Assembly: GCF_011604685.1 (NCBI RefSeq)
Contig: NZ_CP050063.1
Coordinates: 7,171,001-7,235,000, forward strand
Direction: 5' to 3'
DNA from: Spirosoma aureum
GTDB lineage: Bacteria > Bacteroidota > Bacteroidia > Cytophagales > Spirosomataceae
DNA length: 64,000 nucleotides
Under the pieces are notes generated by a model. It made no database searches. It was not told the origin of the DNA and was given only the letters and a program-made list of their open reading frames with translations. Shown here piece after piece: positions 41,426 to 62,797 of the stretch. Every line of letters starts with the position of its first letter. Position 1 is the stretch's first letter. The position numbers and the translations under genes are program-made.

Positions 41426-41470
41426 AACTCCCTGGAGCCGGAAAGTGATAATTTCCGGCTCCAGGGAGTT
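41426..41470 (-). terminator. Strong terminator closing the 21-kb RiPP/acyl operon
   Basis: Perfect 19-base arms (41426-41444 and 41452-41470) with a 7-base loop, followed on the minus strand by a T-rich tract. It lies 62 bases after the last gene of the minus-strand train. Confidence 0.9.
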
Positions 41471-41532
41471 TGGGCAATTTAGAAATTGTATACGTTTTTA
41501 CCGGCGAATCCGCCGTTCAATGACTCGTCAAA

Positions 41533-42567
41533 TTAGTCTGCAACAATTTCCAGCACGAGTTTGCCCGTATTTTGCCCGCCGAACAACTGGCCCAGGAGCG
41601 TGACAAATGTATCGACCGGCCCCGAAACCAGATGAACATCGGATCGAATTGATCCTTCTCGAATCCAGTCCGCTATTTCGGCACGTGCCTCCGCAAACTC
41701 ATCGTAAAAATCGATGCCGACAAAGCCCTCCATACGCGCACGGGTCGAGATGAGGGTCAGATAATTGGCTGGCCCACGCATAAACTGCATGTTATTGTAC
41801 TGCGAAACGGCCCCCGACAAAATCACCCGGCCTCCTCTGGCCATCAGTGGCAATGCTCCATTAAGCACGTCACCGCCAACATTGTCGAAGAATACGTGAA
41901 CGCCGTCGGGACAAAGGGCCGCTAATTCGTCGCGCCAGGTCGGCGATTTATACGACAGGCAGGTATCGAACCCAAACTCCTTTTCAACAATCCGGCATTT
42001 TTCCGGGCTACTGGTAATTCCCACAACGAAGCACCCCTGCCGTTTGGCAATCTGTCCGGCCAGGCTTCCCACACCACCCGCAGCGGCCGAAATCAGGACC
42101 GTTTCTCCAGCCCGGATCTTGCCCACCCGTAACAGTCCGAAGTAGGCAGTCATACCTGGAAGTCCTAAGGCACCAAGGTAGGCTGGCAATGGAGCCACGG
42201 CCGGATCGACCCGATACGGTTTATTTCCGTAATCGGGTTTCTTGAGGTGTTCTTCAGTGAGCAGGGCATAGTCCTGAATGCCGAGATTCGTATAGAGGTA
42301 ATCGCCAATTTTGTAGTCAGGGTGGCGCGATTCCACGACCATACCCGTTCCCAATGCCCGCATTACGGCCCCAACGGGTACGGGATTTATGTAAGATCGG
42401 CCTCCGGCCATCCAGCTTCGCATGGCCGGATCAATGGATACGTACCGATTCTGAACTCGTATTTCATGGACGCCAAGTGGCTGAAAAGGCTGCGTTTCTA
42501 CCGAGAAATCAGTTGCTTTAGGCAAACCAAGCGGCCGGTTGATGAGTCGAACTTGCGTGTTTTGCAT
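41533..42567 (-). CDS. NADPH-dependent medium-chain reductase (alkenal/prostaglandin reductase type)
   Basis: A 344-residue zinc-free MDR enzyme. Blocks: RYVSIDPAMRSWMAGGRSYINPVPVG near the N-terminus is split by Met and Gly residues typical of the leukotriene B4 dehydrogenase / CurA group; LGLPGMTAYFGL; and the dinucleotide motif SAAAGGVGSLAGQIAK. Enzymes of this group reduce carbon-carbon double bonds conjugated to a carbonyl with NADPH. It is separated from the TonB-receptor gene upstream by only 15 bases and is the last gene before the terminator at 41426-41470. It may therefore act on the unsaturated acyl chain of the cluster, an inference; general alkenal detoxification is the alternative. 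Confidence 0.88.
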   Translation of the reverse strand: MQNTQVRLINRPLGLPKATDFSVETQPFQPLGVHEIRVQNRYVSIDPAMRSWMAGGRSYINPVPVGAVMRALGTGMVVESRHPDYKIGDYLYTNLGIQDYALLTEEHLKKPDYGNKPYRVDPAVAPLPAYLGALGLPGMTAYFGLLRVGKIRAGETVLISAAAGGVGSLAGQIAKRQGCFVVGITSSPEKCRIVEKEFGFDTCLSYKSPTWRDELAALCPDGVHVFFDNVGGDVLNGALPLMARGGRVILSGAVSQYNNMQFMRGPANYLTLISTRARMEGFVGIDFYDEFAEARAEIADWIREGSIRSDVHLVSGPVDTFVTLLGQLFGGQNTGKLVLEIVAD

Positions 42568-42582
42568 AATTATATACCGTAA

Positions 42583-44781
42583 TTAATTCTGTAACAGATC
42601 GTTAAGAGTTTTACTGCGCTTATCAATTCCCCAGTTTATAAACAGACCCAGGTAATAGAAGCGATTGGCCAGCGGCATCGAAGCTTCCCTGTTTGTGAGA
42701 GAGCTGTATTGATAACCGAATATCTGCTGATTACCGAGCAAGTTGTTGGCCGAAAAAGCAAGCGTTGAATTAGCCTTACCGATGCGGGTCAAATAAGCCA
42801 CCGTGGCACCTACGTTATGATAGGCCGGTGTATGATCGGTCATAAACTGGTCGTTTTTCCGGTTGGGGTTATAATAGGGCCGTCCTGATGCAAAGGTGTA
42901 GGTCAGGCCGATGTTGAGCGGTATCGACGGAATCAGCACATTGACAACGGTAGCCAGCGTGTGCGTAGCCGCAAAACTGGGCTGCACCAGCATCGGATAG
43001 TCGAGATATTGCCGTTTTGTATCCAGGTATGAGTACGATACCCAGTAGTTTACATTAGGAAGACGATTTTCCTCTTTCCAGAGTACCTCAAACCCACGTG
43101 CATAACCTTTGCCGGTCGAACTGGTATCAGGGCTTGTCCGAAGCAGCCGGTTGTATGTTTTTTGATACAACTCCACCCGAAGCAGCTGATTGGTCCGTAC
43201 CATCTGATAACTCGCGATGTAGTGGGTGGCTTCCTGAAAACGCAGCGAGTTGCGGTTCGTATTGCTGATCAGGTAATCGTAGGTCGGTTGCTGGTAAAAT
43301 TGTCCATAGCTAAGGGTTAACTTATGAACCTTTCCCGGCGCATAGGTCAGCGACATACGCGGTGCTACGGCCAGCCGACTGATTGCCGATGCCCCCTCGG
43401 CCCGAAGCCCCAACCGGGTACTCAGCGTCCGGCTCAGCGACACGTTACTTTCAGCAAAAACAGCTCCATATTGTTCGTTCAGATGCTGAACAGGCGCAAT
43501 TAGATGCTGTTGAGCCAGTTGCATGTCGGTTCCGGTCATGACATGGTCCATACCCAGGTACAGATCCGATCCTTTCCCGATCGACCGCCGAAAGACAACC
43601 CGCGTATTATAAACCTGCTGGGCAACCTGGCGCGACCGACGCAGCGATACCTGTCCATCGATCATTGGCAAAGAGTCAATTGATGCCGTGTTATTAGACA
43701 AACTGGCGCCAAATCCGGCATTCATCGTCCATTCCTTACCCACGCTGCCTGCATACGAAACACTCACAAATCCATTGCTACTCACCAACCCATACTGAGC
43801 GGTTCGGCCGGTGGTATTCTGCAAAAACTGGACGTTATTGCGGCCAACCGTTCCAAGAATTTTCAGCACCCCTTTATCGCCAGCCCGGTATTTGAGGTGA
43901 AACAGGCCGTCGAGGTATTCCGGGCCACCGGTAAATGTGCGACGCTGCGGAACAACGCGATAGTAGGGACTCATGTTCGTGTAGGTGATCGAACCACCTG
44001 CCGACAGCCGTTCAGGACGGATAACGCGGTTCATTTCGAACATTGCACCCGTTGTGCTGATGTTGCCACCTATCGACGAACGGTCGGCCACATCGTTGGT
44101 TTCCAGAATCAAAGCCGACGACAATGCCTGACCATACAGGGCCGAATAACCACCACTACTGAAGAAATTTCCCGAAAATAGCTCTGGCGCAAACCGGCCT
44201 CGCTGCGACACACCAGGGCTACCGTTGTAGAAAAAATTATTGGCCAGCAGCCCATCCACATACACCTTTGTTTCATCGCTAGTGCCGCCCCTGACAAACA
44301 ACCCGGTAGCATCCGAAGTGGCCTGTACACCGGGCATTGTCCGAATGCCATTTGCAATATCGGCATTGCTGCCCCCCATGGCCCGAACCTCCAGCGCTTT
44401 CAGGCTGGGCAATCCGCCCCGGCCCAGAAAATCAGTTTTCCGGGTTTTAACGGTGACACCATCCAGATTGATCGACTCTTCATTGAGCACGAACTTCAGC
44501 GTTATCTGCCGTGTCGTATCGCTGATGGTAACCGTCATCGGCAGATGAGCATAACCCAACATCTGCGCCACCACCTGAACGGTTCCCCGTCCATCGGTCG
44601 TGAACGAAAAGGAGCCATCGGCGTCGGTGGTGGCCCCGGCATACGAATTCAATATCCCAATATTAGCACTGGCTAGTGGCTTCATCTGTGCATTGAACAC
44701 CTTACCCTGCACAACAACCTGACTCCAGGCAGGGCTACTCAGAAGCAGCCCTAAAATGAATGTCTGTAGACGTGTTTTCAT
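42583..44781 (-). CDS. TonB-dependent receptor with carboxypeptidase-like N-terminal domain (1)
   Basis: A 732-residue outer-membrane receptor. Signal peptide (FILGLLLSSPAWSQ), a carboxypeptidase-regulatory-like domain (VVQGKVFNAQMKPLASANIGIL), a plug domain (IRTMPGVQATSDATGLFVRGG) and a 22-strand barrel region ending NRFYYLGLFINWGI. No SusD partner follows, so it is not a glycan-uptake pair. It starts 4 bases after the arginase stop and belongs to the RiPP/acyl operon. It may take up or position the final product, or a metal complex of it; the ligand is unknown. Confidence 0.9.
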   Translation of the reverse strand: MKTRLQTFILGLLLSSPAWSQVVVQGKVFNAQMKPLASANIGILNSYAGATTDADGSFSFTTDGRGTVQVVAQMLGYAHLPMTVTISDTTRQITLKFVLNEESINLDGVTVKTRKTDFLGRGGLPSLKALEVRAMGGSNADIANGIRTMPGVQATSDATGLFVRGGTSDETKVYVDGLLANNFFYNGSPGVSQRGRFAPELFSGNFFSSGGYSALYGQALSSALILETNDVADRSSIGGNISTTGAMFEMNRVIRPERLSAGGSITYTNMSPYYRVVPQRRTFTGGPEYLDGLFHLKYRAGDKGVLKILGTVGRNNVQFLQNTTGRTAQYGLVSSNGFVSVSYAGSVGKEWTMNAGFGASLSNNTASIDSLPMIDGQVSLRRSRQVAQQVYNTRVVFRRSIGKGSDLYLGMDHVMTGTDMQLAQQHLIAPVQHLNEQYGAVFAESNVSLSRTLSTRLGLRAEGASAISRLAVAPRMSLTYAPGKVHKLTLSYGQFYQQPTYDYLISNTNRNSLRFQEATHYIASYQMVRTNQLLRVELYQKTYNRLLRTSPDTSSTGKGYARGFEVLWKEENRLPNVNYWVSYSYLDTKRQYLDYPMLVQPSFAATHTLATVVNVLIPSIPLNIGLTYTFASGRPYYNPNRKNDQFMTDHTPAYHNVGATVAYLTRIGKANSTLAFSANNLLGNQQIFGYQYSSLTNREASMPLANRFYYLGLFINWGIDKRSKTLNDLLQN

Positions 44782-44785
44782 GTCT

Positions 44786-46006
44786 TTACGAAATAGTTAG
44801 ATAGCTCATTAGGCGAAGCAAGATTTCCATAGCCACCTGCGTGGTCAGATCCGTTGAATCGAAGTCGGGATTGGCTTCTACCAGATCGAAGCCTACTAGT
44901 TGACGTCCTGGCAGGAGCTGGCTAAAAAGCTGTTTGATCTCCTCCAGCGAAAAGCCTCCTGGTATCGGCGTTGCGGTGCCTGGCAGAACCGTCGGGTCCA
45001 GAACATCGACATCGAACGTCACGTAATACGGAACATCGTCGGGCAAATCGAACCGTTTGCCCTGCCGTAACTGCTCGCTTACCTGATGACACCAGTGAAT
45101 GTGTTGTTTCGGGCGGGGCCTGGTTCCGGCATTGGCAAACCCGCGAATGCCAAACTGATAGACTTGCTGCACGTTGCTCAATTCCAGGCACTTCGTCATG
45201 AAGTTGCCGTAGTGATGCACCTTCCCCCAGTGGCTTATGCTGTCGTACCGCGAGCCGTAGGTATCGGTGTGTGCATCGAAATGAATGACGTGTAAATTGG
45301 GATAGGTCTCAGAGGCTGCTTTAATGAGTGGATAGCTGATGGAGTGATCGCCCCCGATAAAGGCCGGAATTTTACCGGCTTTAAACAGCTGGCTCGCCAT
45401 GTGGTGAATTTTGGCGTACACAAAAGCCGTCGACTCATTGGCGTTCACGAACAGATTGCCGTAATCAACCAGCTTACTGTTCTGAAACAGGGGCTGAAGA
45501 CGTGTGGCGGTCAGCTCATCAAAAAGCAGGAAATCAGCCCCTTTCAGCAGAAGATTATTATTCTGACTAAACTCCCGGATGTGAAACGGAAACTTCGCTC
45601 CGCCCATCGACTTCCCATTTCCCTTGCCAAACGGAATACCGACAATAACGGCTTCGGCCCGCTCGTGGTAGGCATCTACCCCAAAGATTCGGTTTTTTAC
45701 CGCCATCACATCGGCCGTAAAACGCTCCCACCCTTCGGTGCTGGGATCGAGCAGCAATCCATTTCGTTGCAGATAGGCGATCGCTAGCTCAAGCTGATCA
45801 TTCTCTATGTCCATTTCGTCAAACAGCGCGTCGGTCGTGGCAGGCTGTCTAAAGAAATCAAGGATCGAAACAATGGCCGGGCTAACTTCGTAGCTCTTTC
45901 CACTGATCATGTTGAAGATGGTGCCTTTACCCGTTTGATTCGACAGGGTGATATCAAGATAAGGCGACTTTAACAACAGGGGCGAAACAGAAACGTCGGT
46001 TATCAT
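44786..46006 (-). CDS. Arginase-family enzyme with N-terminal RRE/PqqD-like domain, probable peptide arginase
   Basis: A 406-residue ureohydrolase. The binuclear-metal ligands are all present: His221 (GGDHS), Asp244, His246 and Asp248 (DAHTD), Asp332 and Asp334 (FDVDVLDP). The GTATPIPGG loop and Glu377 (DLVEANP) complete the active site. Residues about 13-88, before the enzyme, look like a PqqD/RRE-type winged helix: a short strand pair (TLSNQTGKGTIFNMISGKSYEVS), then an ILDFF helix and the LELAIAYLQRNGLLLD helix-turn. RRE domains bind RiPP leader peptides. Peptide arginases such as OspR convert Arg in RiPP precursors to ornithine. Here every one of seven adjacent precursors has an invariant Arg next to Cys. 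Free-arginine or agmatine hydrolysis is possible but does not explain the extra domain or location. Confidence 0.85.
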   Translation of the reverse strand: MITDVSVSPLLLKSPYLDITLSNQTGKGTIFNMISGKSYEVSPAIVSILDFFRQPATTDALFDEMDIENDQLELAIAYLQRNGLLLDPSTEGWERFTADVMAVKNRIFGVDAYHERAEAVIVGIPFGKGNGKSMGGAKFPFHIREFSQNNNLLLKGADFLLFDELTATRLQPLFQNSKLVDYGNLFVNANESTAFVYAKIHHMASQLFKAGKIPAFIGGDHSISYPLIKAASETYPNLHVIHFDAHTDTYGSRYDSISHWGKVHHYGNFMTKCLELSNVQQVYQFGIRGFANAGTRPRPKQHIHWCHQVSEQLRQGKRFDLPDDVPYYVTFDVDVLDPTVLPGTATPIPGGFSLEEIKQLFSQLLPGRQLVGFDLVEANPDFDSTDLTTQVAMEILLRLMSYLTIS

Positions 46007-46021
46007 GGCGATGGAGTTTAG

Positions 46022-47302
46022 TTAGTGAGCGAATCGACTACGGATAGCCGTTCGGATAGCTTGTCGGCTCTGGCGGGCATATCCCAGCGAGAAGTAAGCA
46101 AACAGCCCGACCGTTAGTGACGATTTCAGAAACGGCTCAGCCGAGCAGACCGAGAAATCCATGAAGAACTGATAGGTGGTCTGTGGATAATGCAGTACAA
46201 CCTCGAAGAATGTTTTGAAAGCGAACACGAAAAAATAGGCCAGAAACCACAACCGCCCCAGGCTATATACCAGCAGAAACGGATTTTTCAGATCGACTTC
46301 CGGATCGTTCGCCTTTGCCGGTTTCCGAAGTGACGGAAGCACTTTACCAGCCAGATTACGAACATATAGAACTGACTGACGACGCAGATTAGGCAGCGAG
46401 AACAGATCGCTGTAGATCCAGTACCCATCGAATTTGAGGAATGGAATGGCGTTGATAATGATCGTCGCCACATTGAGCTGAATAAGGTAGCGGGTTGTAT
46501 TGATCTGGCCGAAATCGCCAAAGTGACTGACGAGATAACCGATCAGGATCAGGTTGATGAGGAGCTGGAAATAAATACCCCCCAGATTGACGATGGTTCG
46601 TTTGAGTTTTCCAAGCCGCCAGACCTCCGTAACATCGGTGTAGAGTACCGGAAAAATCAGGTATAAGCCCGCTCCAATTTCTTTAGGTTTGATCCCGAAC
46701 CGATAACCCGCTGCGGCATGGCCCAGTTCGTGAATTAATAGAATACCAAGTACGACGGGATAAAAAACGAGCATATGCCACAGCCCCCGGTCGCAGTCAC
46801 CCGTAGCCAGGGTAGCCGCGTTGTGGTTCTGCACATAATGATCGAGGGCCAGCAATTCACGCATCAGGTACGTATTCGCGGCCAGCGCCACCACGAACGT
46901 AATGCCAAAGAATACGGGCGAAAAAACGTACTGAATGATGCGAAGCAACCAGGCATACTGGTTAAACCGAAGCAGTGTATACCGGGCATATATATTGCCA
47001 AGGGCCGGATTGCTGGCCTGGCTTGTTTCTGCCTGAGGAGCGTCGAAAACACCCATTGGCCGGAGTTTATCCTCTACCAGCCGGGCCACATCGTCGGCCG
47101 CAAAATGCGTTTCGCTCTGGCGGGCGTTGAGTGTTTCGCTGATTTGCTGATAGGTAAGCTTCCGGCTGACGCCATCCAAAATAAGGTACACAAATTCCCC
47201 GACTTTATAAGGCCGCCCACTTACGGTCAGCAAAAACTGTCGGTTGGAGTCCGAGCGCTCCATCTCTTCTATTCGGAACGAGTCGGTTTCTAAGGCGATC
47301 AT
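46022..47302 (-). CDS. M50 site-2-type membrane metalloprotease with RRE-like N-terminus
   Basis: A 426-residue membrane protein (ATG 47302; a TTG six bases upstream is possible). Residues about 6-86 again resemble a PqqD/RRE fold (LTVSGRPYKVGEFVYLIL, a helix, then DVARLVEDKLRPMGV). After a linker come several transmembrane helices with the zinc motif HELGH (residues 191-195) and the third-ligand region NAIPFLKFDGYW (residues 284-295). M50 proteases cut within or near membranes. In RiPP loci such proteins are thought to remove leaders or help export. It begins 15 bases before the arginase gene and follows the precursor array, separated from it by an attenuator-like hairpin at 47336-47375. Confidence 0.88.
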   Translation of the reverse strand: MIALETDSFRIEEMERSDSNRQFLLTVSGRPYKVGEFVYLILDGVSRKLTYQQISETLNARQSETHFAADDVARLVEDKLRPMGVFDAPQAETSQASNPALGNIYARYTLLRFNQYAWLLRIIQYVFSPVFFGITFVVALAANTYLMRELLALDHYVQNHNAATLATGDCDRGLWHMLVFYPVVLGILLIHELGHAAAGYRFGIKPKEIGAGLYLIFPVLYTDVTEVWRLGKLKRTIVNLGGIYFQLLINLILIGYLVSHFGDFGQINTTRYLIQLNVATIIINAIPFLKFDGYWIYSDLFSLPNLRRQSVLYVRNLAGKVLPSLRKPAKANDPEVDLKNPFLLVYSLGRLWFLAYFFVFAFKTFFEVVLHYPQTTYQFFMDFSVCSAEPFLKSSLTVGLFAYFSLGYARQSRQAIRTAIRSRFAH

Positions 47303-47335
47303 GGTCAAGTCGGTTTAGGAAAGTTATGGGGAGAG

Positions 47336-47395: not shown

Positions 47396-47509
47396 CTAAA
47401 CGCTAACACTATTGTCGCTGCAACGAGCCGAATCAGCGGCTGCTACGGTAGTTTCGAAGCGATCTTCGAGTTCAACGATCGTCAGTACTTCTGGAGTTGT
47501 GTTATTCAT
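47396..47509 (-). CDS. RiPP precursor peptide 1 (array, most downstream)
   Basis: A 37-residue precursor: leader VLTIVELEDRFETTVAAAD and core SARCSDNSVSV. It is the last of the seven and is followed by the hairpin at 47336-47375. The leader motif L-x-IVELExRFE is shared by all copies, and R-C-S-x-N-x-V is the invariant core; both suggest the enzyme-recognition and modification sites respectively. One Cys, two Ser in the core. Confidence 0.85.
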   Translation of the reverse strand: MNNTTPEVLTIVELEDRFETTVAAADSARCSDNSVSV

Positions 47510-47571: not shown

Positions 47572-47691
47572 CTATACTTCGACCGTGTTGCCACTGCAAC
47601 GGCCAGCATCGGCAGCAGCAGCTGTGGTTTCGAAACGCTCTTCGAGTTCAACGATTGTCAGAGATTTGGCTGGAGAAGTTGTGTTGTTCAT
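47572..47691 (-). CDS. RiPP precursor peptide 2
   Basis: A 39-residue precursor starting MNNTTSPAKSLTIVELEE. The core is AGRCSGNTVEV. It differs from its neighbours by Ala-Gly instead of Ser-Ala before the Arg-Cys pair, so Ser at that place is not required. The upstream spacer carries the conserved TGATTTGAAAAGTGAAAA-type element (plus-strand sense). Confidence 0.85.
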   Translation of the reverse strand: MNNTTSPAKSLTIVELEERFETTAAAADAGRCSGNTVEV

Positions 47692-47751: not shown

Positions 47752-47871
47752 CTACACCTGGACGTTGTTGTCGCTGCAACGAGCTGAATCAGCGGCTGCT
47801 ACAGTGGTTTCGAAACGCTCTTCGAGTTCAACAATTGTCAATGATTCGGCTTGGGGTGCTGTGTTGTTCAT
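47752..47871 (-). CDS. RiPP precursor peptide 3
   Basis: A 39-residue precursor (MNNTAPQAESLTIVELEE...). The core is SARCSDNNVQV. Nearly identical in nucleotide sequence to copies 1 and 2 over the leader, with a 60-base spacer, indicating recent tandem duplication. Confidence 0.85.
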   Translation of the reverse strand: MNNTAPQAESLTIVELEERFETTVAAADSARCSDNNVQV

Positions 47872-47931: not shown

Positions 47932-48057
47932 CTAAAGGGACCGGACACTGTTGTTGCTGCACCGGGCTGAATCGAGTGCGGCAACGGTCATTTCGAAGCG
48001 ATCTTCGAGCTCAACAATCGTTAGCGATTCGTCGTGATAAACGGGCAAAGTCTCCAT
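47932..48057 (-). CDS. RiPP precursor peptide 4
   Basis: A 41-residue precursor, the most divergent: METLPVYHDE at the front, leader EDRFEMTVAALD and core SARCSNNSVRSL. It keeps IVELE, the Arg-Cys-Ser triplet, the Asn and the Val. An extra Arg is present near the C-terminus. Confidence 0.82.
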   Translation of the reverse strand: METLPVYHDESLTIVELEDRFEMTVAALDSARCSNNSVRSL

Positions 48058-48094: not shown

Positions 48095-48244
48095 TTAGTA
48101 GACTACACCATCGGGCGGGGCTGGCGCATTTACCTTAACGGTATTGCCACTGCAACGATCGGTATCGGCGGCCGCAACGGTCGTTTCGAAACGCTCTTCG
48201 AGTTCAACAATCGAGAGAGCCGGGGCAAAGATTTTCGTGTTCAT
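48095..48244 (-). CDS. RiPP precursor peptide 5 (long C-terminus)
   Basis: A 49-residue precursor. The leader is as in the other copies; the core is TDRCSGNTVKV followed by a proline-rich tail NAPAPPDGVVY not seen in the others. Thr replaces Ser two residues before Arg. The longer tail may be trimmed or may make a different product. Confidence 0.82.
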   Translation of the reverse strand: MNTKIFAPALSIVELEERFETTVAAADTDRCSGNTVKVNAPAPPDGVVY

Positions 48245-48418: not shown

Positions 48419-48550
48419 TTAGGCTGCTACAACGGGTACTTTAACCGTGTTATTGCTGCAACGCTCGCTATCAGCAGCGGCAACCGTAGTTTCAAAACGC
48501 TCTTCGAGTTCAACGATTGACAGAGCTGAGGTAGAAAGTTGTGATTTCAT
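48419..48550 (-). CDS. RiPP precursor peptide 6
   Basis: A 43-residue precursor starting MKSQLSTSALSIVELEE (ATG 48550; the frame is open further upstream but without homology to the other copies). Core SERCSNNTVKVPVVAA. A 174-base spacer separates it from copy 5, longer than between copies 1-4. Confidence 0.85.
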   Translation of the reverse strand: MKSQLSTSALSIVELEERFETTVAAADSERCSNNTVKVPVVAA

Positions 48551-48737: not shown

Positions 48738-48863
48738 CTAAACTGCTGAAACAGTGACCGTGTTGCCGCTGCAACGGGCTGAATCGGCGGCTGCTACGGT
48801 CGTTTCGAAACGCTCTTCGAGTTCAACAATTGACAGGGCTGGGGTAGAAACTTGTGCGCTCAT
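48738..48863 (-). CDS. RiPP precursor peptide 7 (first in the array)
   Basis: A 41-residue precursor starting MSAQVSTPALSIVELEE (ATG 48863). Core SARCSGNTVTVSAV. It is the first of the array, 165 bases after the ACP gene, and probably shares the promoter at 49381-49412. Confidence 0.85.
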   Translation of the reverse strand: MSAQVSTPALSIVELEERFETTVAAADSARCSGNTVTVSAV

Positions 48864-49028: not shown

Positions 49029-49316
49029 CTAAACGACTGCCAGTGCATTCTCCTGAACCTTGAGGGCAACCTGCTCACTCAGCGTATCCAGGTTTTGGAA
49101 AGCTTCTTCGCCTAAATCAGAAGGCATCAGGCCAAATTCTTCGGCCAGGCGGGAGGCAATCTCCAGAATAGCCAGTGAATCCTGAATAACGCCCGGATGA
49201 TCTTCAGTGCCGAAGAATGGGGTTTCGTTGGTTAGTTCGACAAGCTCACCATCGGCTTGTAATACGTCGATTACGATTTCACGGATACGGTCCTGGATGT
49301 TTGCTAAAGCTGACAT
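49029..49316 (-). CDS. Acyl carrier protein
   Basis: A 95-residue ACP. The phosphopantetheine attachment site is Ser47 in VIQDSLAILEI, which fits the D-S-L helix-2 start of ACPs, and the four-helix pattern is clear (IQDRIREIVIDVLQ at the front). It is the only ACP of the window and lies next to the precursor array rather than beside the ketosynthases, downstream of a promoter of its own. The holo form would be made by the Sfp-type transferase at 52538-53164. It probably carries the growing acyl chain of the cluster. Confidence 0.9.
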   Translation of the reverse strand: MSALANIQDRIREIVIDVLQADGELVELTNETPFFGTEDHPGVIQDSLAILEIASRLAEEFGLMPSDLGEEAFQNLDTLSEQVALKVQENALAVV

Positions 49317-55150: not shown

Positions 55151-57745
55151 TCACTTATTCACGGTTACTAAAGGCTGATTGATAGCCGCTCCGGGCAACG
55201 GTTCTACAACAGAGCTGACAGGCTTCGGAGCATACCATTGCGGCACGGCTTCTACCGCATAGCGTTTCCCTTCGATACAGATTAGTTCATCGGATGTCGG
55301 TCGCATTTCTACCACTTTCAGGAGGGCTCCTACCGCAACGGCTTTCCGCACTAACCGCCGAAACAGATCCACCAGCAGCGCATTGTCAAAGCGGATGTAC
55401 TGGGGTTTATGGTCGTCGGGATTGGGGGCATCGGGTAAACTGACAAATACTTCATCGGGCAACTGATAGCGTTGTTGCCAGCTATGAGCGGCTCGAAAAA
55501 AAGAAAACGAATCCCCTTCGATGGGCAGCGTGGCCTCGGCCCCGACGGGTAACCACCACGTCTTTCGCTGAATGATCAACCGGCGGTCCAGCACAATGCG
55601 CGGTCCTATCCGTATCGTTCCGGCAGGTTTTTGCTCAGCGTACCACGCATTGATAACCGAGTTGAACACGGACAGACTCAACTCCGGTAACGGAGCAAAC
55701 TGGCACAGAAACGTGTATAAGCGGGACCGATCTGCCTGAAAGCCCATGTCGACAACCTGCACGCGCTTATAGCCTGGCGCATGCCAGAGATCAACCCGCT
55801 GGCCGTCGTCCGATAAGCGCACCGATAAGTCGCTGAGCGGAATGGCTTGTACCGATGAGGATGGCACATGGCCCGCCGGCGTCAAAATAGATCCCTCAAC
55901 CAATGCAGGATGGAAGTTTGCGTTATGGTAATGGTCGTCGGTAGCTTCTACCAGCAAACAATCGGCAGGAGTGGCACTGTGGTTTGTCTTGACAAGTTCA
56001 TGCGTCAGACTATGGTTAAAGTAAGGCAGGAATCGCCCATAAAGTCGCCCAAAGCCACCAGCTAATTCATTCAGCGCGGCACAAAGTCGCCCTCGGCTAT
56101 CGGTCCACGATTGCCAGAAAACAGCCTGACTGAGAAGTGTATCCGACGAATCCGGAATCCATTCACTTCGTAGCTGAACCGTGTCAGCACGTAGCCCTTC
56201 AGCGGCCCAGCGCTCCCATTGCTGTCGAATATCAGGGGTAATTACTGCGCGCTCTTGGAACGGTTCAGGCTGGCTCAGGTAATGCGCAAAGAACGTGGTT
56301 ACGGGTACCGATTCGGTTGTCGGATAAGTAGTTTTGAACAGATTTACCAATGAAGAAGCAGGCGGTGTGCAAACCTCCACCATATGCCTCGTCAATCGAT
56401 CAACACTGGTAATCAGGCGTTTTACATCAGGCTTAGATAAATGCCCCTGTAGCGAACGGGTAACGTCTTCAAAAAATAACTGTTCGGCTCGCAGCGGCCA
56501 GAAATCAGGCGCTGGTGGAGCTGGAAGTTGCCCAATATGCTCTGCCAGCACACCCTGTGCTTTCGATAACAGCGAAAGTCGCTGACCGGGCGTAGCCATT
56601 GGCAACATAGTGGCCGTGGCCAGCAGGGCATGGAGCAAACTAAGCTGGCTATCGACAAACCTGGGTGCCATCCATCGGTACTGAGTCAGCCAGTCCTGCA
56701 ACCGTATTGCCCAGTCAGCATCTGCCGCCGACACAGGCAATGGATGCTGCAAAAGACCCAGTTCGATCAGTTTGTCTATGTATTGATGCGCTTCCAGGCT
56801 TGTTGATCGAAATTTTTGTTGAATCCGGTCGACCCAATCCTTGTACGTTCGCGTCGGGCGACGTGCTGACGTTACCCACCGGAGAACGGGGTTAAGGGAA
56901 ATTTTAACGCAGGCTACCTGACCATTCGTCTGACGGATGTAGCTAAGGCTCTCTCCCGAAATCAGCACACTCGGGTTCACCGTTACAGGCCATTGTTCGT
57001 ATAACCGCCGGTTGGTTCGTAGCATAGCGTCGAATACGCCCAACAATCGAACCGACAGCCGCACATGCGAACGGGGTGAGCCTGCTTTCCAGTCCAGCGC
57101 TTCGCCGGCATGTATGGGTATTGTGGCCAGGTGGGTTAAGGTGCTGTAGGGTGTGGTTTTGGTAGCCGCCCTCGAGAGATAGCGCAACAGCCCGTTTTCA
57201 ATCTGAAAATCATCCTTCCGAAAACGGGCCGGGTTCGTCTGTTGATAAGCCGCAACCTGACGGAGCAATGATAGGCTCGACAAAGCCAGTCCCCGCTGAA
57301 AAGCTGCATTTCCGACGAGTTGCTGAAAATGCTGCCGACCCTGAATCGCCTGCTGACGATAGAGTTTCGCGGTTGTGTTCATGTATCGTTCCAGCGCCTT
57401 ACGGTTATCAATATACGTTACCAATCGATTCAGTAACGATTCGGATAGCCAGTGTTGGGACTGCGCTATATCTTTGGGACGAATTACCCGATCATTGTGC
57501 AGATCACGACGTAATTGCTGTAGTTGCTGCTGCGGTTTTCCGGGCGGACAATGCTTCTCGATTACCGAAAACAAATCGGCCAGTAAGGGTTCTTTGTGGC
57601 TTTCCACCCGCCGACGCCGATGTTCATACTGATGCAGTCGATGGGTGATTACGGGTGCTCGCAGCCCGTCGAGCACATCGATAGACAATCCGGCTACGCG
57701 CAGCAGCACCGGCGACAGGAGCTTTGGCTTGTTCGGAGTAGGCAT
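55151..57745 (-). CDS. LanB-like enzyme without elimination domain (split dehydratase or PEARL)
   Basis: An 864-residue protein with the glutamylation-type LanB domain only. The conserved TPY motif is at residues 198-200 (Arg192-AAT-Lys196-TTPYSTL, where full LanB here has R-x-x-x-R). The C-terminus (after about residue 780) carries no SpaB_C elimination domain, and no separate elimination protein is found in the window. LanB-like proteins lacking this domain include split dehydratases, which need a partner, and peptide aminoacyl-tRNA ligases (PEARLs) that add an amino acid to a precursor C-terminus. The seven precursors next to it make both readings possible. It lies between the DUF2141 and acyltransferase genes. 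Which of the two it is cannot be decided by sequence reading. Confidence 0.85.
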   Translation of the reverse strand: MPTPNKPKLLSPVLLRVAGLSIDVLDGLRAPVITHRLHQYEHRRRRVESHKEPLLADLFSVIEKHCPPGKPQQQLQQLRRDLHNDRVIRPKDIAQSQHWLSESLLNRLVTYIDNRKALERYMNTTAKLYRQQAIQGRQHFQQLVGNAAFQRGLALSSLSLLRQVAAYQQTNPARFRKDDFQIENGLLRYLSRAATKTTPYSTLTHLATIPIHAGEALDWKAGSPRSHVRLSVRLLGVFDAMLRTNRRLYEQWPVTVNPSVLISGESLSYIRQTNGQVACVKISLNPVLRWVTSARRPTRTYKDWVDRIQQKFRSTSLEAHQYIDKLIELGLLQHPLPVSAADADWAIRLQDWLTQYRWMAPRFVDSQLSLLHALLATATMLPMATPGQRLSLLSKAQGVLAEHIGQLPAPPAPDFWPLRAEQLFFEDVTRSLQGHLSKPDVKRLITSVDRLTRHMVEVCTPPASSLVNLFKTTYPTTESVPVTTFFAHYLSQPEPFQERAVITPDIRQQWERWAAEGLRADTVQLRSEWIPDSSDTLLSQAVFWQSWTDSRGRLCAALNELAGGFGRLYGRFLPYFNHSLTHELVKTNHSATPADCLLVEATDDHYHNANFHPALVEGSILTPAGHVPSSSVQAIPLSDLSVRLSDDGQRVDLWHAPGYKRVQVVDMGFQADRSRLYTFLCQFAPLPELSLSVFNSVINAWYAEQKPAGTIRIGPRIVLDRRLIIQRKTWWLPVGAEATLPIEGDSFSFFRAAHSWQQRYQLPDEVFVSLPDAPNPDDHKPQYIRFDNALLVDLFRRLVRKAVAVGALLKVVEMRPTSDELICIEGKRYAVEAVPQWYAPKPVSSVVEPLPGAAINQPLVTVNK

Positions 57746-57794
57746 AGTTCAGGTCATGAGCGATGAGAGGATATGGGTACGATTGAGTTAGGCT

Positions 57795-58996
57795 TTATTC
57801 GGCCGATTGCAGCACGCCCTGGCTCCACCAGTGATCGATAAACGTACCATCTGATGCTGAATCACCCTCGACGGAGGTTGAATCGCTGGACTGTTCCAAT
57901 TGATGCAACCAGTCAAACGCATCGTCGGTCAGCGGAAAGGCCTGATAGGTCTGTCGGTCGAAGAGGTAGCCGGTCTGGTCTATTTTGAAAAGACTGTACC
58001 GTTCTTCGTTGAATCGGAAGGCCGTAACTGGAGCATCCACAACAGGTTCTTCGTCCGACGACGTAGCCGTCAGGGCATCAAAATCAAGGAATTTGTGAAA
58101 GTAAAACCAGCTTTCCCACTGATCGACATACCGCCGGACATAGTCGGCCAGCAGATCATACAGTTGCTGGGTCGTTTCGCGTACAAACACCTCGGCCGGA
58201 ATAGCTTTAGGCGCTATGGCAGGCAGGCAGTCATAGTACGGAATCTCGACACCATCCACCGTTTTGTAATACGAGATAATCGGAATGATAGGCGTTCGGG
58301 TCGCATGGGCCAGCGTAGCAATTCCGCTCCGAGACACGATGGTCTTGTTCAGGAATGAAACCCGCAGCTGCCGGTTATTACGCTGATAAATGCCCCCAAC
58401 GCCCGTATTGCCATCCAGAAAAATCAGAATAGATCGGCCTTTATGCAAAGCCCCGGCCATCTGCCGGCCAATGGCCGGACTTTCGGCATCCAGCATGTCG
58501 ATTGAAGCCGACGCCTGGTTGTATTGATTCAGCTGAGCCGAAATGTTTTCGATGTAGTCCTTCTGGCTTTTCAGCGTGCGGTTATCGATCACCAGCGTGA
58601 GCGGGTAACCCGCGTTCAGCAGCATGGCCAGCACGGCCCGATAGCCCCCAGGTGATACGTGCAGAAGATGCGCGACGGTCGGGGTGAATCGGTCGGCTTC
58701 AGAAAATCGGTATCACCGTTTATACCCATGTGAGCCAGCGAACCAAAATCGACGTAGCGAAAACTGCGAGCGCTCAGCCAGTGATTCGTCAGTAGTCGGA
58801 AGTAGATCGCTTCATGTCGCTCGGCGGGAACATCGGGGCAGAAATGGCTCAGATTGGCCCGCAGAAAATGCAGATCTTTTTGCTGGTGTGCTTTTTTCTT
58901 CTGCTTTTCGCGTTCGCTTACCTCCTGATAAGCCCGTTCGTAGGTCTGCCGAAACGCGGTGCCGTAGGTTTCCCAAAAAGACGATTGCATGGTCAT
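57795..58996 (-). pseudogene. LpxL/HtrB-type acyltransferase, frameshifted at a C5 run
   Basis: Two frames on the minus strand make one protein of about 400 residues. The upstream part (from ATG 58996) ends in FCTYHLG and then leaves frame; the downstream part continues YRAVLAMLLNAGYPLTLVID. One extra G (C on the plus strand, 58645-58649) joins them as HLGGYRAVLAML, the H-x-x-x-x motif of LPLAT-type acyltransferases. As written the catalytic His is lost from the longer piece. An intact enzyme would transfer an acyl chain from the carrier protein to an amine or hydroxyl; in this operon an ornithine or other peptide residue is a natural acceptor, by inference. The defect type equals that of the M1 gene at 2895-2899, so an error is suspected. 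Confidence 0.82.
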
Positions 58997-59010
58997 AACA
59001 AAGGGACGAT

Positions 59011-60255
59011 TTAGGGTTTACGAATTGCCAGTGTCACGGCATTACCGCCCACATGCAGCGAATGAACAAAGGCCGTTGCGCCAGCGCCAAAAACCCGATG
59101 GGTTGTGAGTTTTGGAGCCGCAGTAGGCAATCCAACCTGCGCCGGTTCGTAGCCTGTTCCAATAACCACATTGTCGCGCAGACACAAGGCTCCGGCCAGC
59201 AATGACATTATCGGCGAAGCACTGAAAGTTTCGCCCGTTTGCCCTTTGATATTGGCGTAAGCGGGTAGTGTGCTATCGGCCCAGAGATCCTGAATAGCGG
59301 GCGTTTCGTAATCGCGAATATGCCAGGGCAATCCTCCCCCACCCACGAACAAATCGACGCCCGATGGGTCAATCTGGCTGTATTGGCAGAATTCGGTCAG
59401 GTGATCGAGCAGGTCGTCGGCACTGCGTTCGTAGATAAAATCCCGGTAGGACGTATCGCCCGACACCTGGTAATTTACGATTTCGGCCAGTACCGCAGCC
59501 TGCCGACGTTGAGCGTGTTCGGCCGATTCGAGTACCGCAAACGCAGCCCCTTCGCCGTAGACGATAACTCCCTGTTCATCATGGAGACTCTCGGCAAACG
59601 TCCGGCGCTGGCCCGACGAGTCGGTTACAGAAGGCAGGTAGCCCCGGTACAGGTTCGCCAGCAGCGTAGTCTCCCTGATTTCGTCGAAACCACCACAGAT
59701 GACCACATCTGCTTTGCCATCCCGAATGAGATCATACCCATAGCAAACACTGTTTTCGCCGAGCAGGATCGAGCTTGGTCCTTTGAGTTTAAAGGCACGG
59801 GCTACGTCGCCGAGAGCACAGTTGGTGGTTGTTTTGGTGAATACGAAGGGGCTTACCTTCGACGGGCCGTCGGTATAGAGTTTGTACAAAAAGGCTTCGG
59901 CTGCGGCATTGGCGCTGAGCGTAGTATCCAGGATCAATCCTAGTTGCTCAGGTACGAGTCCGGTCAGATCCAGCCCGGCATTGTCGATGGCCAGGCGACA
60001 GCCGACCATAGCCAGTTGCGAATAGCGAAGCGGAAACGGGGGGCGTAAATTACCGACGTGATCGGTCAGTGTAAAATCAGCGCAGGGTGCGTAGAAAATG
60101 GCTTCATTGGTGGCCAGATCGGGAACATTCCAGGTATCTTTCACCGTGACAGCCGACTCATTCCGGCGAAGAGCCTCCCAGAATGGCTCCAGGCCAACAC
60201 CCAGACCGGACAGGACTCCGCCCCCGGTCAGCACTACAGATGGTTTGGTTTTCAT
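59011..60255 (-). CDS. Ketosynthase-like chain-length-factor partner (KS-beta)
   Basis: A 414-residue thiolase-fold protein aligned with the ketosynthase at 60788-62005, but without catalytic residues. In the KS-alpha GPSSTISTACAAGTNS the segment TISTACAA, with the nucleophilic Cys, is replaced by a shorter ILL (GPSSILLGENSVCYG). The HGTAT motif is absent, and GHTLGAAG reads GETFSASP. Lys of NIK remains. Loss of all three catalytic residues with a normal fold is the mark of chain-length factors (KS-beta) in type II PKS and aryl-polyene systems. It would pair with KS-alpha and set acyl length. It lies between dehydratase and acyltransferase genes. Confidence 0.87.
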   Translation of the reverse strand: MKTKPSVVLTGGGVLSGLGVGLEPFWEALRRNESAVTVKDTWNVPDLATNEAIFYAPCADFTLTDHVGNLRPPFPLRYSQLAMVGCRLAIDNAGLDLTGLVPEQLGLILDTTLSANAAAEAFLYKLYTDGPSKVSPFVFTKTTTNCALGDVARAFKLKGPSSILLGENSVCYGYDLIRDGKADVVICGGFDEIRETTLLANLYRGYLPSVTDSSGQRRTFAESLHDEQGVIVYGEGAAFAVLESAEHAQRRQAAVLAEIVNYQVSGDTSYRDFIYERSADDLLDHLTEFCQYSQIDPSGVDLFVGGGGLPWHIRDYETPAIQDLWADSTLPAYANIKGQTGETFSASPIMSLLAGALCLRDNVVIGTGYEPAQVGLPTAAPKLTTHRVFGAGATAFVHSLHVGGNAVTLAIRKP

Positions 60256-60269
60256 GATCGGGGTTGGAG

Positions 60270-60761
60270 TTAAGCGTTGATGAGTACCGTAACGATTCCC
60301 TTGGCGGCCAGCCCACGACCTTCGATGTCGACGCGCGCTTTGAAGACCGAGAAATTGAGCATCCGGTGGTCGAACACCGCCCGAATGCGTACGGTATCAT
60401 TAGGCAATACAGGCTTGTTGAACGTCATGTTATCGATTTTGATCGCCCGCCCGGAACGGGGTCGATAGTCTTTTTGTATCGAACTCACATCCACGACGTT
60501 AAGCGCTTCGAGCCGGCCGAAAATCCCGCAGGCCTGAAACATCATTTCGACCAGCACTACCCCAGGCAGAATAGGCTCGCCCGGAAAATGCCCCTGAAAA
60601 AACATCGTATCGGGCTTTATGAACGTTTCGGCCTGCACCGACACACCGGGCAAATACTCGATCACCCGATCGATGAGCAGCATGGGTGGGCGATGTGGCA
60701 GCAGATCCTGCGGACGAATCTGATCGACCTGTATCTGATTAAATAGCGTTACTGAAGTCAT
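60270..60761 (-). CDS. FabZ-like 3-hydroxyacyl-ACP dehydratase
   Basis: A 163-residue hotdog-fold dehydratase. LPHRPPMLLID and QGHFPGEPILPGVVLVEMMFQ are FabZ motifs, with catalytic His58 and Glu72 spaced 14 residues apart as in FabZ. It would remove water from the 3-hydroxyacyl chain made by the ketoreductase at 62051-62797. In aryl-polyene-type clusters repeated dehydration without reduction gives polyenes. The cluster has no dedicated enoyl reductase of the FabI type, so an unsaturated chain is possible; the MDR reductase at the end of the operon is an alternative. Confidence 0.9.
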   Translation of the reverse strand: MTSVTLFNQIQVDQIRPQDLLPHRPPMLLIDRVIEYLPGVSVQAETFIKPDTMFFQGHFPGEPILPGVVLVEMMFQACGIFGRLEALNVVDVSSIQKDYRPRSGRAIKIDNMTFNKPVLPNDTVRIRAVFDHRMLNFSVFKARVDIEGRGLAAKGIVTVLINA

Positions 60762-60787
60762 GAGGAAAAGGGTCTTGGCGTACGTAA

Positions 60788-62005
60788 TCAGTTATCGAAG
60801 CGTCGGAGCGCGATGGAGGCCATACAGCCGCCAAAGCCAAAGGAATTAGACAGCGCAGCTCGTATTGGCTGGTCAATGGCGCGGTTCTGTACGAGCCGGA
60901 TTGGCCCTTCATCGGCGACCATTGTGGTTTGAACGTTGCAGGAAGGGGGCACGAAACTATGGTAGATCCCCAGCGCCGTTGTGATGAATTCGATGCTCCC
61001 GGCCGCTCCCAGCGTATGACCGATCATTGACTTGGTTGAACTGATATACACGGGCCGGTCATTCATCAATCGGCCGATACCGTTCAGTTCCATGCTGTCG
61101 TTGACGCCGGTTGCCGTACCATGTGCATTGATATAATCCAATTCGTCGGCGGTCATGTTGCCATGCTGAAGTGCCTGCTTCATGGTCAGGAACGCCGTGC
61201 TGCCATCGGGTGTAGGGGCCGTTGGATGGTGCGCTTCATTATTGGCCGAATACCCTTTTAGCTCGCAGTAGATACGGGCACCCCGCTCCTGAGCATGGGT
61301 CAGGCTTTCGAGCACGACAAAGGCGCTCGCATCACCCAGTGTCAGGCCGTCCCGGTTCTTATCGAAAGGCTGACAAATGGACTTCGACAACGATTGAAGC
61401 GAGTTGAACCCTGCAAAACTCAGTTCGGTAAAAATGTCGATTCCACCGGCAACGGCTACATCTACCCGACCTCCAGCCACAAAATCAAATCCCCGGCCAA
61501 TTGAGTTCGTACCTGCGGCACAGGCCGTTGATATGGTCGATGATGGCCCTCGCCAGCCCAAGGCCCGCATAAAGGAGCCCGTTATGTTGGGGGTCGATGC
61601 CTTGAAGAGCAGTTCATAATCCGCAACCTCAATACCTTCCTGGATTCGCTTTTTGGTGAAGTCCATGAACGCATACGAACCGCCGATTGTGGTGGCTACA
61701 AACAGCCCCGCCCGGTGAGGATTCAACTCCTGTGGCACCAGACTCGCGTCATTCAGTGCTTCGGCAATAACGCGATTACCCAGGTAGGTTAGCACGGTTT
61801 CATCAGACGCTTCAATATCGGCATACAGGTCCTGGTCGAGTACACAAGCCTGCTTGTTGGCATAGCACGCACTATCTGTTGGGAAGCGTTTCGCATCGAT
61901 GGGTTTGAGCCCCAGCCTCCCGTTGTAGACACTATCCTTGAATTCATCTTTTGTCTGGCCAATAGAGCAGCATACGCCAATGCCAGTAACAACAACTCGT
62001 TCCAT
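60788..62005 (-). CDS. Beta-ketoacyl synthase (KS-alpha, FabF type)
   Basis: A 405-residue ketosynthase with a complete active site: Cys162 (STACAAG), His295 (NAHGTAT), Lys325 and His330 (STKSMIGHTLGAAG). The N-terminal MERVVVTGIGVCCSIG is typical. It condenses acyl and malonyl units on the ACP of the cluster. It is encoded in a run with a ketoreductase, a dehydratase and the inactive partner KS-beta, so it forms the core of a dedicated type II acyl-chain builder separate from primary fatty acid synthesis. Confidence 0.93.
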   Translation of the reverse strand: MERVVVTGIGVCCSIGQTKDEFKDSVYNGRLGLKPIDAKRFPTDSACYANKQACVLDQDLYADIEASDETVLTYLGNRVIAEALNDASLVPQELNPHRAGLFVATTIGGSYAFMDFTKKRIQEGIEVADYELLFKASTPNITGSFMRALGWRGPSSTISTACAAGTNSIGRGFDFVAGGRVDVAVAGGIDIFTELSFAGFNSLQSLSKSICQPFDKNRDGLTLGDASAFVVLESLTHAQERGARIYCELKGYSANNEAHHPTAPTPDGSTAFLTMKQALQHGNMTADELDYINAHGTATGVNDSMELNGIGRLMNDRPVYISSTKSMIGHTLGAAGSIEFITTALGIYHSFVPPSCNVQTTMVADEGPIRLVQNRAIDQPIRAALSNSFGFGGCMASIALRRFDN

Positions 62006-62050
62006 AAAAGTAAGGGTTTAGGAAAAATGAAGTGATCAGATCGATGTACC

Positions 62051-62797
62051 TCAGGATACACCCAGTCCACCGTCGATGGTGAGTTCCTGACCGATAATGT
62101 AACTGGGCGCATCGCAGAGCATGTAGGTTACCAGATTAGCCACTTCATCAGCGCCACCTTTGCGTTTCAGCGGAGACCACACCAGGCGATTGGCCACGTA
62201 TTCGTTGCTGATGTCGCGGGTCATATCGGTATCGATAAGTCCCGGCGAAATGCAGTTCACCGTAATGCCGAACCGCCCTACTTCTTTGGCTAACGACCGG
62301 GAAAATGTTACCACTGCTGCTTTCGAGGCCGAGTAAGCCGACTGGCCTGCGTTGCCTTTCTGACCCGACAATGAGGTGATGTTGATAATCCGACCCGCTT
62401 TGCGGGCAATCATCATGGGTAGCAGAACCCGGCAGGTATTTGTCACGCTGCCCACGTTCGTCCGAATCACATCCCACCAGTGTTCGTCGGTAGCAAACAG
62501 GAAGGGTTTTCCATCACCAACGATACCCGCATTGTTGACAATAGCGTCCAGATAGCTAACGTCCTGTCGTATACGTTTTGCTAAAGCCAGCACATCGGGC
62601 AAGCTGCTCATGTCGCAGCGGTAGGCATAGGCCCCACCCGTTCCGATCTGATTAATCTCAGTGATAAGTTCGCCAGCTTTCACGTCATTGCTGAGGTAGG
62701 TGAAGAGAACGGTGCAACCACGCTCAGCGAGCGCCAGGCATATAGAGCGGCCAATCCCGCGCGAGCCGCCGGTGACCAGAACAATAGATTTTTTCAT
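62051..62797 (-). CDS. fabG: FabG-like 3-ketoacyl-ACP reductase
   Basis: A 248-residue short-chain dehydrogenase. NADP motif TGGSRGIGRS, NNAGIVGDG, and the catalytic Ser142, Tyr155 and Lys159 (YSASK) with the FabG spacing. It reduces the 3-ketoacyl intermediate of the type II acyl system. It is the first gene of the train with biosynthetic function; upstream are only a TPR protein and an XRE regulator. A primary FabG elsewhere in the genome is likely, making this a dedicated copy, though I cannot confirm. Confidence 0.9.
   Translation of the reverse strand: MKKSIVLVTGGSRGIGRSICLALAERGCTVLFTYLSNDVKAGELITEINQIGTGGAYAYRCDMSSLPDVLALAKRIRQDVSYLDAIVNNAGIVGDGKPFLFATDEHWWDVIRTNVGSVTNTCRVLLPMMIARKAGRIINITSLSGQKGNAGQSAYSASKAAVVTFSRSLAKEVGRFGITVNCISPGLIDTDMTRDISNEYVANRLVWSPLKRKGGADEVANLVTYMLCDAPSYIIGQELTIDGGLGVS

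What the first reader, a model, noticed from the sequence alone, without database searches (positions are those of the whole stretch)
41426..62797. A hybrid RiPP and type II fatty-acyl gene train
Seen: one uninterrupted minus-strand series with gaps of mostly 3-50 bases that holds seven precursor peptides together with KS-alpha, KS-beta, FabG, FabZ, ACP, phosphopantetheinyl transferase, thioesterase, acyl ligase and an LpxL-type acyltransferase, plus an arginase, an M50 protease and a LanB-like protein. Known: selidamide-type RiPPs carry fatty acids on Lys or Orn but use GNAT enzymes and host acyl chains; lipolanthines combine lanthipeptides with PKS/NRPS. Inference: this operon makes a ribosomal lipopeptide whose acyl chain is built by its own type II system and attached by a non-GNAT acyltransferase. 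I know of no described system with this parts list.
Basis: partly seen in the sequence, partly recalled or inferred. Interest (0 to 1): 0.95.

Follow-up and report, generated by a model that had tools for sequence, protein, structure and literature searches.

The report
Ribosomal peptides with self-made lipid tails
In Spirosoma and its relatives, one gene train holds short ribosomal peptides together with a predicted fatty-acid-type chain builder, and an acyltransferase with a predicted peptide-binding domain would likely join the two into a lipid-tailed peptide, a step for which the described lipid-tailed ribosomal peptides use other enzymes.

Summary
On the minus strand at 41533-63570 lie seven precursors (leader VELE[E/D]RFE, Arg-Cys nine residues on), an arginase, an M50 protease, KS-alpha, a KS-beta without catalytic triad, FabG, FabZ, ACP, PPTase, thioesterase, AMP ligase, a split LanB and an LpxL-like acyltransferase, whose gene is frameshifted in this window; intact copies exist. 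The halves belong together: nine KS-bearing loci (six Spirosoma, Arcicella, a third genus, Galbibacter) all keep precursors, protease and acyltransferase, and two further loci keep precursors, arginase, protease and acyltransferase without KS genes. The acyltransferase model is a PatA/LpxM fold whose C-terminal domain superposes, at middling Z, on the RiPP recognition elements of TbiB1, LynD and MccB. One Spirosoma lacks the arginase, and its three precursors read Val-Cys. Best reading: a new family of lipidated RiPPs whose chain comes from a dedicated type II system and is attached at the Arg(Orn)-Cys site by a non-GNAT acyltransferase. Acceptor residue, chain and function are untested; LanB is accessory (5 of 9 loci). 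No description was found in the searches made.

The parts
62890..63570 (-). TPR-like secreted protein, conserved neighbour of the train
   Evidence: found in all 9 KS loci, in Galbibacter only at 25% identity; role unknown
62051..62797 (-). FabG-type ketoreductase (short-chain dehydrogenase)
   Evidence: PF13561 8e-58 and PF00106 9e-58; TIGR01830 ketoacyl reductase 1.4e-67 and flexirubin FlxB 2.7e-62, both under cut-off
60788..62005 (-). KS-alpha, Cys-His-His triad present
   Evidence: PF00109/PF02801; triad check
60270..60761 (-). FabZ-type dehydratase
   Evidence: PF07977 5e-21
59011..60255 (-). KS-beta, lacks Cys, His and His (chain-length-factor-like)
   Evidence: PF00109 6e-15; triad check
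58616..58996 (-). N-terminal part of the LpxL/PatA-type acyltransferase, frameshifted here
   Evidence: one frame in G185, G214, G183, G046
57795..58634 (-). C-terminal part of the acyltransferase with the RRE-like domain (about 57798-58025)
   Evidence: AF2 model of a near relative; Foldseek and VIA matches
55151..57745 (-). split LanB, glutamylation-type domain only
   Evidence: PF04738 6e-30; profile hits 6ec7 3e-22 (recalled as TbtB) and a goadsporin protein 9jhq 2e-11; present in 5 of 9 KS loci
54687..55100 (-). DUF2141 secreted protein
   Evidence: PF09912 2e-30; in 9 of 9 KS loci
53168..54676 (-). AMP-dependent acyl/aryl ligase
   Evidence: PF00501 1e-59; nearest solved chains salicylate-AMP ligase and oxalate-CoA ligase
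52538..53164 (-). phosphopantetheinyl transferase
   Evidence: PF01648 2e-8
51775..52518 (-). thioesterase
   Evidence: PF00975 8e-38; in 8 of 9 KS loci, Galbibacter has another alpha/beta hydrolase
49467..51824 (-). TonB-dependent receptor 2 (start chosen to limit overlap)
   Evidence: PF00593 3e-14
49029..49316 (-). acyl carrier protein, next to the precursors
   Evidence: PF00550 3e-4; DSL conserved in 6 sequences
48738..48863 (-). precursor 1
   Evidence: translation
48419..48550 (-). precursor 2
48095..48244 (-). precursor 3
47932..48057 (-). precursor 4
47752..47871 (-). precursor 5
47572..47691 (-). precursor 6
47396..47509 (-). precursor 7
46022..47302 (-). M50 protease, predicted leader peptidase, with PqqD/RRE-like N-terminus
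   Evidence: PF02163 3e-7; NCBIfam daptide_HExxH 2.5e-29, under cut-off; hhalign to a PqqD set
44786..46006 (-). PF00491 arginase with PqqD/RRE-like N-terminus
   Evidence: PF00491 2e-52; GGDHS, DAHTD and DxD residues invariant in 6 sequences; hhalign
42583..44781 (-). TonB-dependent receptor 1
   Evidence: PF13715, PF07715; in 9 of 9 KS loci
41533..42567 (-). CurA-like double-bond reductase
   Evidence: NF058644 8e-86, under cut-off; in 6 of 9 KS loci

Best explanation
The train encodes short ribosomal peptides and the enzyme set of a predicted type II (KS-alpha/KS-beta) acyl-chain system, and it is predicted to make lipidated RiPPs in which that chain is transferred to the invariant Arg-Cys site, most likely onto ornithine made from the Arg by the arginase, by an LpxL/PatA-type acyltransferase with an RRE-like domain that would bind the leader. 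Working order (inferred): arginase, acyltransferase and M50 protease each bind the VELE[E/D]RFE leader through RRE-like domains; the PPTase activates the ACP; the AMP ligase loads a starter; KS-alpha with the catalytically silent KS-beta, FabG and FabZ build a chain that is probably unsaturated, as no dedicated enoyl reductase was recognised; the acyltransferase moves it to the peptide; the M50 protease removes the leader. Two TonB-type outer-membrane proteins suggest handling at the outer membrane. The split LanB is a lineage-specific extra.
Against: G196 keeps the acyl machinery and the acyltransferase without Arg or arginase, so ornithine cannot be the acceptor there; Cys is the residue that stays. 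Of five loci of more distant acyltransferase relatives without an arginase, four have a neighbouring small peptide, each with Cys, and one (G223) has none that I recognised. The RRE match of the acyltransferase is structural and of middling Z, tied with rows of the unrelated oxygenase NO66 (5.8-6.2). Pfam does not see it; by profile it matches the arginase N-terminus only, not PqqD or the M50 N-terminus; modelled alone the domain was poor (pLDDT 64) with no significant Foldseek hit. The acyltransferase lacks the usual acid of the HX4D/E motif. In this very window its gene is frameshifted. Six of the nine KS loci are from one genus, so they are not independent. In an even phylum sample only the window's own genome has a full-length arginase match, so the system is rare. 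No chemistry was measured.
Confidence: 0.62

Rival explanations
1. Same pathway, but the acyl group goes onto the Cys (as a thioester, or as an N-acyl group after cleavage), and the ornithine is a separate modification.
For: The Cys is present once in 117 of 117 cores that fit the pattern (the query rows all had it, which biases the count) and is kept in G196 where Arg and arginase are lost. Peptides beside four of five distant acyltransferase relatives contain Cys. The missing acid of HX4D/E would suit a more acidic nucleophile (inference).
Against: The known pairing of arginase with lipidation puts the lipid on ornithine (selidamides, introductions of PMC12703449 and PMC13060382). The one listed precursor without Arg-Cys has Lys-Cys (P0276). 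The G196 acyltransferase is more diverged where Arg was lost. Each of the three G196 cores has a Lys near its end that could serve instead.
Confidence: 0.3
2. Two separate products: a type II polyene or fatty lipid that the LpxL-type enzyme puts on an ordinary lipid, and an unlipidated ornithine-containing RiPP.
For: Type II systems with LpxL-type acyltransferases make stand-alone lipids (aryl polyenes, flexirubins; recalled). Precursors, M50 and arginase also occur without KS genes.
Against: In those KS-free loci the acyltransferase stays with the peptide genes; it has an RRE-like domain; genes of the two halves are interleaved (ACP beside precursors, acyltransferase beside KS-beta), and in Galbibacter they are interleaved differently; 8 of 8 KS-beta loci in the family have the precursors.
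Confidence: 0.12
3. A lanthipeptide-type pathway in which LanB dehydration is the main chemistry.
For: Lant_dehydr_N domain; Thr and Ser in the cores; a zinc-type reductase next door, a family that in lanthipeptide clusters can reduce dehydro residues (LanJA, passage in PMC7268733).
Against: No elimination domain in the train; the only one in the genome is in a full LanB at 24583-27693, which is genus-wide (31 of 36 genomes). The split LanB is missing from 4 of 9 KS loci and was not found in the Galbibacter genome. No cyclase was found in the train. G196 has the reductase without the split LanB.
Confidence: 0.05

Closest known systems
Selidamides (kamptornamide, phaeornamide) and nostolysamides
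   Same: ribosomal peptides with fatty acyl on ornithine or lysine side chains (introductions of PMC12703449, PMC13060382)
   Different: they use GNAT acyltransferases, and the nostolysamide enzyme takes acyl-CoA in vitro (PMC13060382); here an LpxL/PatA-type enzyme, a PF00491 arginase, another leader and an own type II system
DAG-RiPPs (RiPP-lipoprotein hybrids of Bacteroidota and others)
   Same: lipidated RiPPs known from Bacteroidota, Spirosoma included (abstract and passages of PMC12636315)
   Different: made by the general lipoprotein pathway on an N-terminal Cys after a signal peptide, with MNIO enzymes; here no signal peptide is evident in the precursors (by eye) and no MNIO was found in the train
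Lipolanthines, goadvionins, lipoavitides
   Same: a RiPP joined to an acyl chain; for lipolanthines and goadvionins a chain-building system in the cluster (recalled)
   Different: class III lanthipeptides lipidated at the N-terminus, by GNATs (PMC13060382 introduction); no such synthetase here
Peptide arginases: OspR family (PF12640) and KgrD of enteropeptins (PF00491)
   Same: Arg to Orn in a RiPP core; KgrD is PF00491 and acts on an Arg next to Cys
   Different: KgrD needs a thiomorpholine made first (PMC12703449 introduction); no radical SAM protein in this train; RRE-like domain on the arginase; no KgrD sequence was compared
Daptide MpaP and YydH/LiaK metalloproteases
   Same: M50-type peptidase; MpaP is described as RRE-dependent (passage in PMC10036551)
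   Different: scores well under both NCBIfam cut-offs
Aryl polyene and flexirubin type II systems
   Same: KS pair, FabG, FabZ-like, ACP, ligase, PPTase, thioesterase, LpxL-type acyltransferase (comparison recalled)
   Different: no ammonia lyase or MMPL exporter among the train's proteins; peptide genes instead

Membership tests
RiPP | small precursors with conserved leader and variable core beside modifying enzymes | tested here: met
   seven in the window, 2-7 in each of ten further loci, conserved leader motif
RiPP | RRE-type leader binding | tested here: inconclusive
Selidamide | GNAT acyltransferase | tested here: not met
   no GNAT domain among the train's enzymes; acyltransferase is LpxM/PatA fold
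Selidamide | acyl on Orn/Lys side chain | not testable with these tools
   needs mass spectrometry
DAG-RiPP | lipoprotein signal peptide on the precursor | not tested
   no signal-peptide program was run; the precursors are short and acidic with no hydrophobic N-terminus by eye
Lipolanthine/goadvionin | class III lanthipeptide synthetase | tested here: not met
   none among the train's proteins
OspR peptide arginase | PF12640 | tested here: not met
   PF00491 is the only Pfam family matched
KgrD-type peptide arginase | PF00491 with metal ligands, Arg next to Cys in the substrate | tested here: met
   activity not tested
KgrD-type peptide arginase | thiomorpholine-bearing substrate | not testable with these tools
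   no radical SAM protein in the train
Class I lanthipeptide | LanB with elimination domain plus LanC | tested here: not met
   no PF14028 in the train; no cyclase seen
PEARL | tRNA-dependent amino acid addition to the peptide C-terminus | not testable with these tools
   sequence does not tell it from split LanB
Aryl polyene/flexirubin cluster | ammonia lyase and MMPL exporter (recalled) | tested here: not met
   neither found in the train
LPLAT acyltransferase | fold and HX4D/E motif | tested here: inconclusive
   fold met; His kept, acidic residue replaced by Arg or Lys in the six aligned

The most novel reading that the evidence does not exclude
This is an undescribed class of lipidated RiPPs, scattered across Bacteroidota and defined by the leader VELE[E/D]RFE and a fixed Arg-Cys site. 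It would be the first in which an LpxL/PatA-type acyltransferase fused to a RiPP recognition element lipidates a ribosomal peptide, fed by a dedicated KS-alpha/KS-beta chain builder. The acyltransferase family reaches further RiPP-like loci with other precursors (own genome, G198, G161, G238), so it could be a general peptide-lipidation tool of the phylum.
Probability: 0.6. Interest if true: 0.88.

Novelty: new variant of a known kind. Interest (0 to 1): 0.82.

Why it matters
If true, RiPP lipidation has a further route beside GNATs and the lipoprotein pathway, one that is guided by a leader and supplied by its own type II chain builder. That would give a portable peptide-acylation tool and a genome-mining handle for an unmined group of lipopeptides in Bacteroidota. 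The paired loss of arginase and Arg in one genome is a ready-made test of what each enzyme does.

Tried and rejected

Papers: PMC12703449 outline, first part of the text and one find; PMC13060382 first part; PMC12636315 abstract and twelve passages; PMC12710340 a find with no hits; PMC10036551 one passage; PMC7268733 three passages; all others seen only in search listings.
Full report
What is there. The window is G000:C1:7171001-7235000 of an 8.9-Mb single-contig genome. Its genus is that of G214, whose contig length and coordinates equal those of Spirosoma terrae KCTC 52035. The minus-strand train runs from a CurA-like reductase (41533) to a TPR protein (63570) and holds all the parts named in the finding. 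KS-alpha has its Cys-His-His triad; KS-beta lacks all three residues, as a chain-length factor would. No dedicated enoyl reductase was recognised: the FabG-type protein does match PF13561, a short-chain dehydrogenase family named after enoyl reductases, but its best NCBIfam match is a ketoacyl reductase. The CurA-like protein could reduce a double bond, but it is missing from 3 of 9 KS loci.

The acyltransferase gene. In the window it is split into two overlapping frames, while it is one frame of 399-402 aa in G185, G214, G183 and G046. A protein of 400 aa at 98% identity to the G185 copy is in the protein collection (P0001), so intact copies exist. The break may be a real mutation or an assembly error; it could not be told here. 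If it is real, this strain may not make the lipidated product.

Conservation. Whole-genome searches in the family found the arginase in 8 of 222 genomes at 9 loci and KS-beta in 8 of 222; seven genomes have both in one locus. Reading these loci and Galbibacter marinus (found by the scan; class Flavobacteriia against Cytophagia for Spirosoma) gives eleven loci. Nine bear KS genes: window, G185, G214, G183, G216, G196 (all one genus, Spirosoma), G046 (Arcicella MAG), G153 (another genus) and Galbibacter. All nine have KS-alpha, KS-beta, FabG, FabZ, ACP, ligase (in Galbibacter 31% identical, at the edge of the locus), PPTase, acyltransferase, M50, receptor 1, DUF2141, a TPR protein (25% identical in Galbibacter) and precursors. 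Eight have the thioesterase; Galbibacter has another alpha/beta hydrolase there. Eight have the arginase, six the CurA-like reductase and five the split LanB, which was not found anywhere in the Galbibacter genome. Two loci (G046 C393, G110) have precursors, M50, arginase and acyltransferase but no KS genes within the 19 and 38 kb read. A twelfth, truncated locus (L048, 6.2 kb) has M50, arginase, a hydrolase, acyltransferase and receptor 1; it begins at the M50 gene, so precursors could not be seen. In Galbibacter the order is changed (ligase, PPTase, FabZ, KS-beta, FabG, KS-alpha, ACP, precursors, M50, arginase, hydrolase, acyltransferase, receptor, DUF2141, TPR), so the set has stayed together through rearrangement. 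Pairwise distances of KS-beta, acyltransferase, M50 and arginase correlate at 0.95-0.99; this is expected of any co-inherited genes and is no proof of shared function. The system is rare: in an even sample of 395 genomes of the phylum only the window's own genome has a full-length arginase match.

The precursors. A profile of 16 precursors matched 272 proteins, of which 120 were listed, with source names from Spirosoma, Galbibacter, Flavobacterium, Chryseobacterium, Flavilitoribacter and Saprospiraceae. Of the 120, 117 fit the pattern E[LM]E.R[FL][EDKQN]; 116 of these have Arg-Cys, always nine residues after the motif; 99 of the 116 have no other Arg in the core; all 117 have exactly one Cys. 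The three that miss the pattern also have Arg-Cys, and the one exception (P0276) has Lys-Cys. The query rows all had Arg-Cys, which biases this count. In the KS-free loci the seven cores read have two Arg-Cys pairs each.

A natural experiment. G196 has the acyl machinery, acyltransferase and M50, no arginase in the locus and no match in the genome at 1e-30. Its three precursors keep leader, spacing and Cys but read Val-Cys. Loss of the enzyme with loss of exactly that Arg argues that the arginase acts there; it is one genome, hence one event. It also shows that the acyltransferase can persist without ornithine. Each of the three G196 cores ends in Lys, another possible acceptor. The G196 acyltransferase is further from three Spirosoma loci (0.56-0.57) than the Arcicella one is (0.51-0.54), although its KS-beta is nearer (0.35 against 0.40-0.41), which would fit a changed substrate; this was not tested for significance.

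Mechanism. Shown: the parts, their conservation, the KS-beta triad loss, the Arg/arginase co-loss in one genome. Inferred: that the arginase makes ornithine, that the chain is unsaturated, that the acyltransferase moves it to the Arg-Cys site, that the M50 enzyme cleaves the leader. I favour ornithine as acceptor because lipidation of ornithine has precedent in selidamides (introductions of PMC12703449 and PMC13060382), because the one listed exception is Lys, and because the acyltransferase is more diverged where Arg was lost. The constant Cys makes thiol or N-acyl-Cys a serious rival. More distant relatives of the acyltransferase, without arginase, sit beside small Cys-containing peptides in four of five loci read (own genome, G198, G161, G238; not G223).

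LanB. The split LanB has only the Lant_dehydr_N domain. Its profile's nearest solved relatives are 6ec7 (3e-22; recalled as TbtB of thiomuracin) and a goadsporin protein (2e-11). The only elimination domain in the genome lies in the full-length LanB at 24583-27693, a genus-wide gene. Whether the split protein glutamylates, or adds an amino acid to the C-terminus as PEARLs do, cannot be told.

Against known kinds. It works like a selidamide or lipolanthine pathway, in that a peptide gets a fatty tail, but the tests for GNAT, class III synthetase and PF12640 arginase are not met. Lipidated RiPPs of another make, the DAG-RiPPs, are known in Bacteroidota (PMC12636315, abstract and passages); they use the lipoprotein pathway and MNIO enzymes. 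The system is therefore filed as a new variant of lipidated RiPPs, not as a member of those families. Absence from print rests only.

Noticed in passing
G000:C1:1466805-1467920 (outside the window; L070/L071) and G198 L072/L073, G161 L074: A second relative of the acyltransferase sits in the same genome and two others beside small peptides with CC or C (in G198 two identical copies); a LytTR-like protein is near in the own genome and G161; no arginase or KS genes were found in the stretches read.
   Followed up: partly
G238:C9:175781-180169 (L077/L078): A radical-SAM-like protein (by eye), a Cys-rich 57-aa peptide with the leader VVKLEERLE, an acyltransferase relative, an M50 protease and a TonB-type protein in a row: possibly another lipidated RiPP type with a related leader.
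   Followed up: partly
window 24583-27693 (+): Full-length class I LanB with a receiver-like gene upstream; no LanC or precursor was recognised nearby by eye; the gene is present in 31 of 36 genomes of the genus.
   Followed up: yes
window 57795-58996: The acyltransferase gene is frameshifted in the window but not in four relatives; intact copies exist.
   Followed up: partly
window 63623-63964; G046 C76:19726-19980; G216 C34:451574-451828; G196 C1:5431314-5431604: A small XRE-type regulator (by eye) recurs in or next to the clusters and may control them.
   Followed up: no
L049:6135-6779; G153 C18:40166-40792; G216 C34:438715-439455; G000:C1:7235554-7236186 (just outside the window): A DUF2306-like membrane protein recurs in or beside the clusters.
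   Followed up: no
window 17384-19777 and 38732-41101: Two large paralogous secreted proteins of about 790 aa lie in this part of the window.
   Followed up: no
G046 C76:28936-32233 (L044): A C39-type ABC transporter and a HlyD-like protein (by eye) follow the Arcicella train; no such exporter was found in the window's train.
   Followed up: no
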